A DNA stretch of 42,015 bases from a virus, in IMG/VR virus record IMGVR_UViG_3300010354_000189, positions 1 through 42,015 of that record; one strand, written 5' to 3'. Both the position numbers and the translations under genes were made by a program. Below, piece by piece: positions 23,255 to 27,351 of this stretch (positions within the stretch are counted from its first letter, which is position 1; every line of letters starts with the position of its first letter). Below the pieces are notes generated by a model. The model searched no databases, was not told the DNA's origin, and saw nothing but the letters and a program-made list of their open reading frames with translations.

Positions 23255-26200
23255 ATGAAAGTAAAAAAAAGAGACGGTTCCTTAGAGGAGATGAGATATG
23301 ATAAAATCACAAAAAGAATACAATATTTTTGTGATGATTTAGATAAAAACCATATAGACCCTACATTAATTACATTAAAAGTGACTCAAGGTATATATGA
23401 TGGTATATCAACAAATGAATTAGATATATTAGCGTCAGAAACCGCAGCATCGTTAGTTACAACACATCCAGATTATGCAAAATTAGCGGGAAGACTTACT
23501 GTATCTAATTTACATAAGACTACACCTAAAAAGTTTTCACAATCTATAAAAGAGTTATATTCTTTTATTGAAATTAAAACGGGCAAAGAATCTTCTTTGA
23601 TTTCATCAGAAATATATCAATTTGTAATTCAAAATAAAGATGCATTAGATTCTTATATAAAACAAGAAAGAGATTTTGATTTTGATTATTTTGGTATTAA
23701 AACATTAGAGAGATCTTATCTTTTGAAGAATGGTCAAAAGATAATTGAGAGACCACAATATATGTACATGAGAGTTGCGGTAGGTATATGTAAAGGTGAT
23801 TTGGATATGGCATTTAAAATATATGATGGCCTTTCACAACATTTTTACACACACGCAACACCAACTTTATTCAATGCTGGTACTGTTAGACCTCAAATGT
23901 CATCTTGTTTTTTGATTGGAAATAAAGGGGATGATATTGATGGATTATTCGACACGATAAAAGATGTTGCAAAAATATCTAAATGGGCTGGAGGTATTGG
24001 ATTACATGTTCACGATGTAAGAGGTAAAGGTTCTTACATTAAAGGTACTGGAGGGGAATCTGATGGTCTTGTCCCTATGTTGAAAACATACAATGAGGTT
24101 GCTCGTTGGATTAATCAGTGTTTTTCTCCTGAAACATTATTATACACTAGTGAAGGTATAAAAAGAATAGATGAAATTAAAAGTGGTGATTTAGTTTTAA
24201 CTAAAGAAAGAAAATATTCTGAAGTTGGGGAAGTTTTTTCTTACCAACAAAATGGTGGTATGATTGAAATTGAAACAAAATCATCATTAAAATCATTAAT
24301 TTTAACGGATGGACATCCACTATTTGGGTTTAAAAATACCTATAATAGGATTTCTAGAGAAAATACTGATTACCTTAATCAATTAGAAAAGGGAATAGTA
24401 GTTCCTGATTGGATAGATAGTGGAGAATATAAAGTTGGTGATTTTATTGGTAAACCAATACCAAAAGAAATTATTGATGTTGATGATTTTACAGAAGATG
24501 ACGCATTTATTTATGGGTTATTATTAGGTGACGGACATATTACCAGAAAAGAAGTAGGAATATCATTCAATAAATTAACAAATGATAAAGAAGTTGATTT
24601 TGTTAAAAAATATTTATCTAAAAAAGATATAAATTTTTGGGAATATACTATCGATGATAAACCATATGTTTCTATTAAGTTTTCTTTATCTAAATTATCT
24701 TGGTTATCATATGAACAACTTTATGATGATAAAAAGAAAAAAAGAATAAATAAAAAATATTCACATTTACCATTAAATAAATCTATAAAAATAATTTTAG
24801 GATTAATTAAATCGGACGGTGGTGTTTATAGAAAAAATGAAATTCATTTTTATAATACTAGTGAATCTTTAATTGAAGATATATCCTATCAAATACTTAG
24901 ATTTGGAGTACCAACATATGGTAAGTGGACTAATAGAGAAAATAATAGTGTTTATTTAAAAGAAAATGGTTGTACACAAGAATTTACTATGTCTTGTGAT
25001 TTAAGAATACCTTCATTTAATGAACTTGCAACTTTATTAAATGTTGATGAGGTGACCAAAAAAAATTGGATAGTATGGGATAACATTCTTTATACTAGAA
25101 TTACAAGTGTAAAAATGTTGGATAATTATGATGGTAAAGTTTATGATTTAAAAATAAAAGAAAACGACGAGGATCCCTCATATACTTTAACATCTTGTTT
25201 AGTTCATAATGGTGGGAAGAGAAAGGGTTCATTCGCTATTTACTTAGAACCATGGCATTCTGATATTTTCGATTTTATTGATTTAAGAAAAAATCATGGA
25301 AAAGAAGAAATGAGGGCTAGAGATTTATTTTTAGCTATGTGGACACCTGATTTGTTTATGAAACGTGTAGAAGAAGATGGTGATTGGTCATTATTTTCAC
25401 CTGACGAAGCGCCAGGATTATCTGATGTATATGATGACCCATATAAGTTTACACAAGAATTTACAGAATTGTATGAGAAATATGAAAAACAAGGAATCGC
25501 CAGAAAAGTAGTTAAAGCTAGAAAATTAATGGATGCTATTTTAACTGCTCAGATTGAAACAGGGACTCCATATATGTTATACAAGGATGCTGCAAATTAT
25601 AAATCTAACCAAAAAAATCTTGGTACGATTAAATCTTCAAATTTGTGTTCTGAAATAATTGAATATAGTTCACCCACAGAACAAGCGGTCTGTAACTTAG
25701 CATCAATTGCATTACCGAAATATATTGTAGATGGTGAATTTAATCATCAATTATTATATGAATATACTTATCAAATTGTAAAAAATCTGAATAACGTCAT
25801 TGACTTAAATTTTTATCCCACTGAAGAAACAAAAAGGTCTAATATGAGACATAGACCAATTGGAATTGGAGTACAAGGATTAGCTGACGTGTTTTGTAGT
25901 TTAATGTTACCTTTTGAAAGTGACCAAGCAGATAAATTACAAACTGAAATTTTTGAAACAATTTATTTTGCGTCCTTATCTTCATCAAAAGATTTGGCTA
26001 AAGAAAATGGTCATTATGAAACATTTATTGGTTCTCCATTATCTCAGGGTTTATTCCAATATGAATTATGGAATAAGAAAGATGAGGATAATAGTGGTAG
26101 ATGGGACTGGAAGAAATTAAGAGAGGAAATTTTAAGTTTTGGTGTTAGAAATTCATTATTAGTTGCACCGATGCCAACCGCATCGACTGCACAGATATTA

Positions 26201-26731
26201 GGTAATAATGAGGCATTTGAACCATTTACAACAAATTTATATACAAGAAGAACATTAAGTGGTGAATTTGTAATGATAAATAAACATTTAATAAAAATAT
26301 TATTAGATAAAAACTTATGGTCTGAAGATATAAAAAAGAAATTAATTATTGAAAATGGTTCAGTACAAAACATACCTGAAATCCCGACAGACATAAAAGA
26401 AGTATTTAAAACTGTTTGGGAAATGTCACAGAAAAGAATTCTTATGATGGCGGCTAATCGTTCAGTTTACATTGACCAATCACAATCATTAAATTTATTT
26501 ATTGATAATGTTACAAAACAAAAATTATTAGCTGCACACATTTATGGATGGAAACTTGGTTTAAAAACTGGTATGTACTATTTGAGAACAAGATCAGCAG
26601 TTGATCCATTAAAAGGATTAGGTATTGATACTTCTATTGTTAATAATTTGATAATAAAAAATAATACTGACATAATAGAGTCGATTAAACCAACCGATTC
26701 GTTATTTGATTGTGAAGGATGTGGTTCTTAA
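23255..26731 (+). CDS. nrdA: Ribonucleotide reductase class Ia, large subunit NrdA, with intein
   Basis: The open frame has 1158 residues, of which 289-652 are an intein (separate entry), leaving 794 of NrdA. Residues 1-90 are an ATP cone (VKKRDGSLEEMRYDKITKRI). Active-site residues are C218 (SSCFL), N796, C798 and E800 (NLCSE) and C813 (AVCNL). The radical path tyrosines are in GMYYLRTRSA. The C-terminal swivel pair is C1153 and C1156 (CEGCGS). NrdA proteins end with the same CxxC-type tail. The sequence is closest to the eukaryote-like group, as is NrdB. The extein junction is ...ARWINQ | intein | GGKRKGSFAIY, inside a strongly conserved region, where relatives have DQGG(G/N)KR. The joined product would be one residue shorter there. 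It reduces ribonucleotides using the NrdB radical. Confidence 0.95.
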   Translation: MKVKKRDGSLEEMRYDKITKRIQYFCDDLDKNHIDPTLITLKVTQGIYDGISTNELDILASETAASLVTTHPDYAKLAGRLTVSNLHKTTPKKFSQSIKELYSFIEIKTGKESSLISSEIYQFVIQNKDALDSYIKQERDFDFDYFGIKTLERSYLLKNGQKIIERPQYMYMRVAVGICKGDLDMAFKIYDGLSQHFYTHATPTLFNAGTVRPQMSSCFLIGNKGDDIDGLFDTIKDVAKISKWAGGIGLHVHDVRGKGSYIKGTGGESDGLVPMLKTYNEVARWINQCFSPETLLYTSEGIKRIDEIKSGDLVLTKERKYSEVGEVFSYQQNGGMIEIETKSSLKSLILTDGHPLFGFKNTYNRISRENTDYLNQLEKGIVVPDWIDSGEYKVGDFIGKPIPKEIIDVDDFTEDDAFIYGLLLGDGHITRKEVGISFNKLTNDKEVDFVKKYLSKKDINFWEYTIDDKPYVSIKFSLSKLSWLSYEQLYDDKKKKRINKKYSHLPLNKSIKIILGLIKSDGGVYRKNEIHFYNTSESLIEDISYQILRFGVPTYGKWTNRENNSVYLKENGCTQEFTMSCDLRIPSFNELATLLNVDEVTKKNWIVWDNILYTRITSVKMLDNYDGKVYDLKIKENDEDPSYTLTSCLVHNGGKRKGSFAIYLEPWHSDIFDFIDLRKNHGKEEMRARDLFLAMWTPDLFMKRVEEDGDWSLFSPDEAPGLSDVYDDPYKFTQEFTELYEKYEKQGIARKVVKARKLMDAILTAQIETGTPYMLYKDAANYKSNQKNLGTIKSSNLCSEIIEYSSPTEQAVCNLASIALPKYIVDGEFNHQLLYEYTYQIVKNLNNVIDLNFYPTEETKRSNMRHRPIGIGVQGLADVFCSLMLPFESDQADKLQTEIFETIYFASLSSSKDLAKENGHYETFIGSPLSQGLFQYELWNKKDEDNSGRWDWKKLREEILSFGVRNSLLVAPMPTASTAQILGNNEAFEPFTTNLYTRRTLSGEFVMINKHLIKILLDKNLWSEDIKKKLIIENGSVQNIPEIPTDIKEVFKTVWEMSQKRILMMAANRSVYIDQSQSLNLFIDNVTKQKLLAAHIYGWKLGLKTGMYYLRTRSAVDPLKGLGIDTSIVNNLIIKNNTDIIESIKPTDSLFDCEGCGS
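24119..25210 (+). mobile_element. LAGLIDADG intein in nrdA with glycine at the +1 extein position
   Basis: The element encodes 364 residues (289-652 of the open frame). It starts with Cys1 in CFSPETLLYTSEGIKRIDEI (block A), followed by block B LTDGHPLFGF (TxxH). A two-motif homing endonuclease lies inside: YGLLLGDGHI (D426) and LGLIKSDGGV (D521), both aspartates intact. Blocks F and G are GKVYDLKIKEND and SYTLTSCLVHN, ending with the expected His-Asn. The next residue is Gly (codon GGT at 25211), whereas class 1 inteins require Cys, Ser or Thr there. The domain may therefore cleave without ligating, or splice by an unusual route, as described for some bacterial intein-like domains. The endonuclease should spread the element to intein-free nrdA copies. 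Confidence 0.9.
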
Positions 26732-26743
26732 AAGAAATAGGTG

Positions 26744-26822
26744 ACTCCCTCAAAGTTTACTGTCGTCAAGGCGTACCTTGAGCATCTATGTTTAGAAAAT
26801 ACAGGGGGTGAATATCTAAACA
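26744..26822 (+). ncRNA. Putative pseudoknotted structured RNA between nrdA and gp25
   Basis: This stretch is clearly less A+T-rich than its surroundings. Three helices can be drawn by eye. Hairpin 1 is TCAAGG / CCTTGA (26766-26771 with 26776-26781) with loop CGTA. Hairpin 2 is a perfect 8-bp TGTTTAGA / TCTAAACA (26789-26796 with 26815-26822) with an 18-base loop. Seven bases of that loop, AGGGGGT (26803-26809), can pair with upstream ACTCCCT (26744-26750, one G-U), which makes an H-type pseudoknot enclosing hairpin 1. An alternative helix CTCAA (26749-26753 region) with TTGAG (26778-26782) would compete with hairpin 1, suggesting a switch. A terminator follows at once. It is not a tRNA. I cannot assign it to a known class; it may be a small RNA, riboswitch-like leader or 3' UTR of nrdA. 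Confidence 0.55.
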
Positions 26823-26834
26823 CATTTTATTAAT

Positions 26835-26861
26835 AAAAACCCAACTATGTTGGGTTTTTTT
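26835..26861 (+). terminator. Intrinsic terminator upstream of gp25
   Basis: The stem AAAAACCCAAC / GTTGGGTTTTT with a 3-base loop TAT is followed by T residues. It ends the nrdA transcript and the putative RNA before the second tail module. Confidence 0.9.
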
Positions 26862-26898: not shown

Positions 26899-27351
26899 AT
26901 GGCGAAAACATACGGTATTGATTTTCCATTTAGAGAAAGTAGAAAAGGTTCTTTCTTTAATATGACTGAGACACCAGGTGCTGAAATTAGGGCGAATTTG
27001 TTACATTTAATTTTAAGTAAAAGAGGAACTAGATATTATTTACCTGATTTTGGTACAAGACTTTATGAATATATTTTTGAACCAAACGATTCGGTTACAT
27101 TTCAAATGATAGAAGATGAAATTAGAACGACAGTTAAAAAATTTATTCCGAATTTAGATATAACTGAAATAAGAATAGTACAAGCTGACCAAGACACGGA
27201 AGAACTTTCAAGTGTTAGTGAGGAAAGTGATAGTAGATTATTTAGAGTATCTAGTAATTCTTCAAAACCTTATACAGCTAAGGTTAGAATTGATTATGAC
27301 ATTAACAACGAACCATTTAGTTCATCAGATTTTATAATTATTAACATATAA
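26899..27351 (+). CDS. gp25: Baseplate wedge protein, gp25/W-like (GPW_gp25)
   Basis: The 150-aa protein has the family hallmarks: AEIRANLLHLILSKRGTRYY, then LPDFGTRLYEYIFEPND (the 'EP.mpdfGs.l..ylFep.d' motif), a helix beginning MIEDEIRTTVKKFIPNLDI and the closing strands YTAKVRIDYDINNEPF. In contractile tails this protein lies at the inner wedge and primes sheath assembly. There is an insert rich in Ser and acidic residues (about 97-118) before the last strands, so it is a little longer than T4 gp25 (132 aa). It starts the second tail module, 37 bases after a terminator. The next gene begins one base after its stop. Confidence 0.9.
   Translation: MAKTYGIDFPFRESRKGSFFNMTETPGAEIRANLLHLILSKRGTRYYLPDFGTRLYEYIFEPNDSVTFQMIEDEIRTTVKKFIPNLDITEIRIVQADQDTEELSSVSEESDSRLFRVSSNSSKPYTAKVRIDYDINNEPFSSSDFIIINI

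What the first reader, a model, noticed from the sequence alone, without database searches (positions are those of the whole stretch)
26740..26861. Pseudoknotted RNA candidate with own terminator between nrdA and gp25
In a very A+T-rich phage this 80-base stretch is locally G+C-richer and folds well by eye: an 8-bp and a 6-bp perfect hairpin plus a 7-bp loop-to-upstream pairing that makes a pseudoknot, and a competing helix that could switch hairpin 1. A strong terminator follows. It is too structured for a spacer and fits no class I recognise (not tRNA; no hammerhead core). Its place behind the ribonucleotide reductase genes invites a metabolite- or replication-linked role, which is speculation.
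Basis: partly seen in the sequence, partly recalled or inferred. Interest (0 to 1): 0.7.

Follow-up and report, generated by a model that had tools for sequence, protein, structure and literature searches.

The report
Single-copy pseudoknot RNA of large phages
The stretch is one member of a large, apparently undescribed family of knotted RNAs that big phages carry, usually as a single copy, in their transfer-RNA arrays, behind genes, and even built into other known RNAs, which suggests a portable RNA part with a job of its own that nobody has yet worked out.

Summary
It belongs to a widespread phage RNA family. On 44 diverse members 98.2% of 888 pair cells are standard pairs, the pseudoknot is paired in all 44, and 14 of 22 pairs show double-sided changes. 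A model built without the window finds it. No Rfam 15 family matches the RNA.
It is not tied to ribonucleotide reductase. Relatives sit in tRNA arrays, in front of, behind and inside phage tmRNAs, and inside a phage RNase P RNA. Of 66 phage records with a match at E<=0.01, 65 have exactly one copy, in genomes up to 636 kb, and the site differs between phages. Best reading: a trans-acting RNA, or portable RNA domain, that binds an unknown partner; conservation and distribution are shown, function is inferred. Rivals: a local RNA-stabilising or antitermination element, a single-copy cis element such as an origin, a self-cleaving ribozyme. No RNA-level data exist here.

The parts
26738..26743 (+). 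P1, 5' strand (UAGGUG)
   Evidence: pairs with 26783-26788; (95.8% of cells paired; conserved G.U in 43 of 44)
26744..26750 (+). pseudoknot helix PK, 5' strand (ACUCCCU)
   Evidence: paired in 44 of 44 diverse members, with GC/AU/GU and UG/GU/AU exchanges
26754..26761 (+). small variable hairpin P2 (AGUUUACU), 2-3 bp here
   Evidence: three covarying pairs in the 18 members that have it
26766..26781 (+). P3 hairpin UCAAGG-CGUA-CCUUGA
   Evidence: 98.9% of cells paired, 5 of 6 pairs with double-sided changes
26783..26788 (+). P1, 3' strand (CAUCUA)
   Evidence: as for P1 5' strand
26789..26796 (+). P4, 5' strand (UGUUUAGA)
   Evidence: P4 97.9% paired, 5 of 8 pairs with double-sided changes in the 18 relatives of alignment A2
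26803..26809 (+). PK, 3' strand (AGGGGGU), flanked by conserved AUAC and GAA
   Evidence: invariant and near-invariant columns
26815..26822 (+). P4, 3' strand (UCUAAACA)
26736..26815 (+). core of the RNA as matched by covariance model R2
   Evidence: 77.3 bits, E=2.1e-17 in its own record, the only copy; R2 includes the window, so this is not independent; R1 does not include it: 42.5 bits, E=1.1e-4
26835..26859 (+). intrinsic terminator, of a kind also present in relatives that lack the RNA
23255..26731 (+). nrdA with a LAGLIDADG intein, upstream neighbour of the RNA
   Evidence: Pfam PF02867, PF00317, PF03477, PF14528
26899..27351 (+). gp25 baseplate wedge gene, downstream neighbour
   Evidence: Pfam PF04965

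Best explanation
It is a member of a phage-borne family of compact pseudoknotted RNAs, about 70-110 nt, kept as one copy per phage genome. P1 and the pseudoknot strand are contiguous and should stack into one helix of about 13 bp; the P3 hairpin and conserved loops (UCAA/UUAA, the P3 tetraloop, AUACA, GAA) are held around it, and the 3' side is closed either by P4 (window type) or by an outer stem P0 (leader type). It rides on whatever transcript the phage already makes (3' UTR before a terminator, tRNA array, leader of tmRNA, or inside tmRNA or RNase P RNA) and acts in trans as a folded RNA that binds a partner, most likely a protein shared by these phages or a universal host factor. Shown: structure, conservation, copy number, contexts. 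Inferred: that it is transcribed and excised, that it acts in trans, and that it works by binding.
For: Structure: (0 of 500 shuffles reach the covariation score in each; slid controls fall to 28-58% paired). Held-out recognition: R1, built from 18 sequences without the window, finds the window, the L001 group and others at E 1e-4 to 1e-3. One copy per record: 47 of 49 records and 18 of 19 new records with a match have exactly one match at E<=0.01. Context independence: tRNA arrays, tmRNA spanning the RNA, tmRNA starting 29 nt behind it, RNase P RNA class A with the RNA in the P3 position, 3' UTRs. Relocation: G037 and G026 have gp25 without the RNA beside it, and the RNA elsewhere. Promoter: TAnnTTTG exactly 14 nt before GGUG in 15 of 132 distinct copies, all of the leader kind; any offset 20 of 132 against 2.7% of random positions. 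Removal of tRNA and tmRNA leaders by RNase P is established knowledge and would free such a leader.
Against: No RNA-seq, no partner, no phenotype. Inside tmRNA and RNase P RNA it is not released unless cut out. One record (G461) has two good copies. 14 of 80 gp25 loci lack it at this place and 5 have only its 5' half; whether those phages have it elsewhere is unknown. No match in Flavobacterium phage immuto, Microcystis phage Mel-JY01 or 5 of 7 huge-phage records scanned, so it is not universal among large phages. The tight spacing behind stop codons (69 of 137 distinct cores within 12 nt) could hint at a cis role.
Confidence: 0.52

Rival explanations
1. A cis-acting transcript element: it stabilises an RNA end against exonucleases (in the way of viral exonuclease-resistant RNAs) or lets RNA polymerase or ribosomes behave differently just downstream (put-like antitermination in untranslated operons).
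For: It is the very 5' end of some tmRNA and tRNA transcripts, judged by the promoter box, lies directly before a terminator in the nrdA group, and is common in untranslated RNA operons.
Against: Usually one copy per genome although these phages have many transcripts that could use it; it lies at the 5' end, in the middle or at the 3' end of transcripts; inside RNase P RNA and tmRNA an end-protection or antitermination role is hard to picture.
Confidence: 0.2
2. A single-copy cis element of the phage genome that works through a transcript, such as an RNA-primed replication origin or a packaging signal.
For: One copy per genome. In LR756500 it lies in the sampled 20-kb stretch at the cumulative GC-skew minimum, next to the sign change.
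Against: In LR756504 there is no such relation; position varies among gp25-bearing phages; one record has two copies.
Confidence: 0.09
3. A small self-cleaving ribozyme with HDV-like strand order (P1a-P2a-P3-P1b-P4-P2b).
For: The leader type has this strand order; cuts would be tolerated between tRNAs, behind stop codons and perhaps in tmRNA.
Against: No ribozyme family of Rfam matches at E<=10 in the two stretches searched at that depth. P0, which pairs sequence 5' of P1 with sequence 3' of PK, covaries (5 of 8 pairs), which would be pointless if the RNA cut 5' of P1. It sits within modelled RNase P RNA and tmRNA, which a cut would split.
Confidence: 0.07
4. A metabolite-binding riboswitch for the neighbouring gene (the nrd idea).
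For: Compact, strongly conserved pseudoknot with conserved loops and wobble pairs.
Against: No constant downstream or upstream gene; it lies behind genes or inside ncRNAs, and its helices do not overlap the terminator stem in the window.
Confidence: 0.05
5. A selfish mobile RNA or DNA unit that survives by landing where an extra structured domain does no harm.
For: Different sites in related phages, insertion into peripheral positions of tmRNA and RNase P RNA, truncated remnants (L056-L060).
Against: Nearly always one copy, no shared flanking sequence or terminal repeats seen by eye, and strong conservation of fold and loops across very different phages.
Confidence: 0.07

Closest known systems
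GOLLD and ROOL RNAs (passages read in PMC12286853)
   Same: phage and prophage ncRNAs of unknown function, structured with pseudoknots, often encoded near tRNA islands
   Different: those are very large (GOLLD often above 800 nt) and form multimeric nanocages; this one is about 80 nt, and is also found built into tmRNA and RNase P RNA; no Rfam match to either here
tmRNA pseudoknots (Rfam RF00023, RF01849)
   Same: in L262, L172, L216 and L430 the RNA stands in a tmRNA between tag frame and 3' part, where pseudoknots stand
   Different: alone it does not match tmRNA models (best 7.5 bits), and mostly occurs outside tmRNA; a common origin is not excluded
Type III toxin-antitoxin RNAs such as ToxI (passages read in PMC12373285)
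   Same: small RNA pseudoknot; protein-binding RNAs of this kind matter in phage-host conflict
   Different: ToxI-type antitoxins are tandem repeats of 34-50 nt beside a toxin gene; this is a single unit with no constant neighbour gene
HDV-like ribozymes
   Same: order of helices in the leader type (HDV order recalled)
   Different: no Rfam match, long linker between PK and P3, no sign of the conserved catalytic parts (recalled), covarying outer stem P0
Pistol ribozyme
   Same: window type: the loop of hairpin P1 pairs with a strand enclosed by a second helix (recalled topology)
   Different: no Rfam match at E<=10; extra P3 hairpin; no third helix

Membership tests
HDV-like ribozyme | match to an Rfam HDV model | tested here: not met
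   no hit at E<=10 for the window and one leader-type member; none at gathering in 16 loci
HDV-like ribozyme | nested double pseudoknot strand order | tested here: met
   leader type only, alignment A6; the window type differs because P4 encloses the PK strand
HDV-like ribozyme | self-cleavage 5' of P1 | not testable with these tools
   needs in vitro transcription; covarying P0 across the would-be cut argues against
Pistol ribozyme | match to the Rfam model | tested here: not met
Type III TA antitoxin RNA | tandem repeats of one pseudoknot next to a toxin gene | tested here: not met
   one match per record; window neighbours are nrdA and gp25
GOLLD / ROOL | match to their Rfam models, large size | tested here: not met
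   no hit at gathering; core of 71 model positions
tmRNA pseudoknot | occurs only as part of tmRNA | tested here: not met
   most of 137 distinct cores lie outside tmRNA; 8 inside it by ARAGORN, Rfam or tag reading
Riboswitch | fixed position in front of one kind of gene | tested here: not met
put-type antiterminator RNA | acts in cis on RNA polymerase | not testable with these tools
   no transcription assay; sequence of put not compared

The most novel reading that the evidence does not exclude
A new kind of portable, trans-acting phage RNA: one folded unit per phage genome that can live as a free small RNA cut out of tRNA or tmRNA transcripts, as a 3' UTR, or as an extra domain grafted into the phage's own tmRNA or RNase P RNA, and that disables or recruits a conserved cellular factor in many unrelated hosts.
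Probability: 0.35. Interest if true: 0.9.

Novelty: categorically new. Interest (0 to 1): 0.76.

Why it matters
If the family is what it seems, many large phages, from T4-like ones to a huge phage of 636 kb, carry the same small RNA machine, and it has escaped notice because it sits in intergenic gaps and inside other RNAs. A folded RNA kept once per genome while its address changes is good evidence for an important function in infection, and the family gives a ready alignment, covariance model and set of phages with which to find its partner. It also shows phage tmRNA and RNase P RNA used as carriers for an additional RNA domain.

Tried and rejected
nrd-linked riboswitch: rejected on context. 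Known Rfam class: none; RAGATH-21 at 16.1 bits against a gathering score of 70.3 was treated as chance. Bacterial homologues: the one genome-contig scan gave 2 hits, neither of which continues the fold (L232, L233), and R2 found nothing in 394 genomes of the phylum of G048, a Chlorobiales MAG, under stricter filters and without a positive control, so this is weak. Named phages and plasmids: blastn of four RNA queries against phages found only LR756500 and LR756504 credibly (the window query gave only scattered weak hits), plasmids nothing credible. Origin test by GC skew on two huge phages: no common pattern. A script test of whether each copy is closed by P4 or P0 was badly segmented and only weakly above its control (97 of 123 against 61% in shuffles); it was replaced by the explicit P0 count and I do not use it. 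Scan with GCGCCC/GGGYGC: 23 stretches, of which 7 were new loci (L415-L421); none of these 7 shows the fold by eye. Scan with a longer gap: 13 stretches; 11 were scored with R2 and all 11 matched; L432 and L434 were not scored. Literature: listings and abstract starts only, except passages of PMC10085705, PMC12373285 and PMC12286853; no paper describing this RNA was seen, in a library that lacks most subscription journals.

Counts to read with care: the 137 distinct cores come from a regular expression plus a pairing check, not from a model; 6 candidates were rejected there, of which at least L347, L281 and L149 are real members cut badly or with one mismatch; 23 of the 137 are unclassified. 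The records were chosen because most were known to hold a copy, and some are near-duplicates (for example G014-G016, G017-G019).

Full report
WHAT IS AT THE COORDINATES. The gap between nrdA (23255-26731, ribonucleotide reductase large chain with a LAGLIDADG intein) and the gp25 baseplate gene (26899-27351) holds, in this order: P1 5' strand 26738-26743, PK 5' strand 26744-26750, a small hairpin about 26754-26761, hairpin P3 26766-26781, P1 3' strand 26783-26788, P4 5' strand 26789-26796, PK 3' strand 26803-26809, P4 3' strand 26815-26822, and a terminator 26835-26859. No ORF of 40 aa or more overlaps the RNA. ARAGORN finds no tRNA or tmRNA and Rfam 15 nothing at gathering scores; at E up to 10 only weak matches appear. 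By itself the strand order could be chance in such A+T-rich DNA (19 and 13 descriptor matches on the two strands).

COMPARATIVE EVIDENCE. tblastn-confirmed relatives of gp25 in IMG/VR gave 80 loci. Intact copies of the RNA lie upstream of gp25 in 60 of the 80 (27 distinct sequences with the window), 5 (L056-L060) keep only the 5' half, 14 (L003, L009-L021) lack it, and L032 is too short to tell. RNAalifold on 27 sequences finds P1 unaided. On 18 relatives P1 is 100%, PK 91.5%, P3 77.8% and P4 97.9% paired, with 9 pairs changed on both sides (0 of 500 shuffles for the covariation score, 4 of 500 for the number of such pairs, 381 of 500 for pair types). A covariance model from these 18 (R1), which does not contain the window, finds the window at 42.5 bits and E=1.1e-4 in 690 kb.

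THE FAMILY IS MUCH WIDER. Not all are members: some matches lack the fold (for example L086, L097, L098, L108). An alignment of 44 diverse cores (A4) gives 98.2% of 888 cells paired, PK 100%, 14 of 22 pairs with double-sided change, 115 such cells against 27.7 in shuffles, and slid controls at 31-58% paired. PK changes include GC to AU and U.G to G.U and A-U; a G.U in P1 is kept in 43 of 44 and a wobble in PK in 43 of 44. A second architecture closes the RNA by an outer stem P0 and has a local P4 hairpin: on 27 leader-type sequences 97.6% of 778 cells are paired, P0 has 5 of 8 and P4 3 of 3 pairs with double-sided change. Loci with long inserts and other members never used in the model, 22 besides the window, matched R2 at E<=4.4e-7, except that L147 had been used in it.

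WHERE IT SITS. tRNA arrays: in L093, L094, L105, L106, L124 between tRNA-Gly and tRNA-Val and in L103 between tRNA-Gly and tRNA-Pro. Inside tmRNA: Rfam tmRNA models span it in L172 and L216, L262 (97.2 bits, E=1e-38) and L430 (76.7 bits); ARAGORN tmRNAs span it in L262, L284 and L287; L189, L215 and L343 by reading the end of the tag frame. In front of tmRNA: ARAGORN tmRNAs start 29 nt after it in L297 and L298, L245 by Rfam. Behind tmRNA: L347 of the 636-kb phage LR756504. Inside RNase P RNA: a class A RNase P RNA in L201, 78 bits and E=6e-24 but under the gathering score of 100, has the RNA in the P3 position; L145 looks alike but was not confirmed. Behind genes: 76 of 137 distinct cores lie within 30 nt of a stop codon, 69 of them within 12; these are dominated by nrdA relatives of the window. 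In 15 of 132 distinct copies a TAnnTTTG box, which I recall as the Bacteroidota -7 element, stands exactly 14 nt before GGUG; these 15 are related to each other.

ONE COPY PER GENOME. R2 on 49 records gave exactly one match at E<=0.01 in 47, none in L011's record and only a weak one (0.083) in L009's; one record had an additional weak match of 0.059. On 30 further handles, 22 had a match; 3 of these were already counted; of the 19 new ones 18 had one copy and G461 two. Together 65 of 66 records with a match have one. No match: G443 (which has the truncated copy), G444, G463, LR756501, LR756502, LR756508, LR756511, LR745206, and two named phages. G037 and G026 show relocation: gp25 at 86107 and 24034, the RNA at 255657 and 132991; in G037 the gp25 side has a zinc-finger-like ORF and a terminator without the RNA, and in G026 the RNA leads a tmRNA-like transcript (by eye).

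HOW IT PROBABLY WORKS. A switch for a neighbouring gene would need a constant neighbour, and an operon-wide cis element would be expected in several copies; neither is seen. A single folded unit whose loops are kept while its address changes fits an RNA that acts in trans by binding something. Being a leader or spacer of tRNA and tmRNA transcripts gives it a way to be freed by RNase P and tRNA 3' processing (established enzymes; not shown here). Inside tmRNA and RNase P RNA it would be displayed rather than freed. What it binds is unknown; the spread over phages of differing G+C content suggests either a phage protein that travels with it or a universal host factor. The P1 and PK strands are adjacent without a linker, so a continuous stacked helix is likely (inference).

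STATUS. The existence of the family is close to certain; its absence from print is as far as Rfam 15 and eight library searches reach. The trans-acting reading is moderately supported and untested at the RNA level.

Noticed in passing
window 23255-26731: The phage nrdA carries an intein with a LAGLIDADG domain between the N-terminal and barrel domains of the reductase (Pfam).
   Followed up: partly
L201 3059-3392: A phage contig with 25 tRNAs encodes a class A RNase P RNA (78 bits, E=6e-24, below the gathering score).
   Followed up: partly
L172, L216, L245, L262, L347, L430: Phage-encoded tmRNAs found by Rfam, some with tag-like reading frames ending in AVAA.
   Followed up: partly
L347 2332-2406 (also L383 17045-17120): In the 636-kb phage LR756504 ARAGORN reports a tRNA with a four-base anticodon (tcta) close to the tmRNA.
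   Followed up: no
L424 5661-5784: A Y RNA-like (YrlA) match of 41.2 bits, below the gathering score of 69, in a phage contig with a tRNA array.
   Followed up: no
L056 2082-2138 and L057-L060: Truncated copies of the RNA keep the 5' half and end as the P3 hairpin followed by a T run, as if a remnant had become a terminator.
   Followed up: no
L423 about 1750-1990, L424, L428, L434: Here the RNA is followed by a similar stretch of about 70 nt whose end can pair with sequence upstream of the RNA, as if it were a domain of a larger unknown RNA.
   Followed up: no
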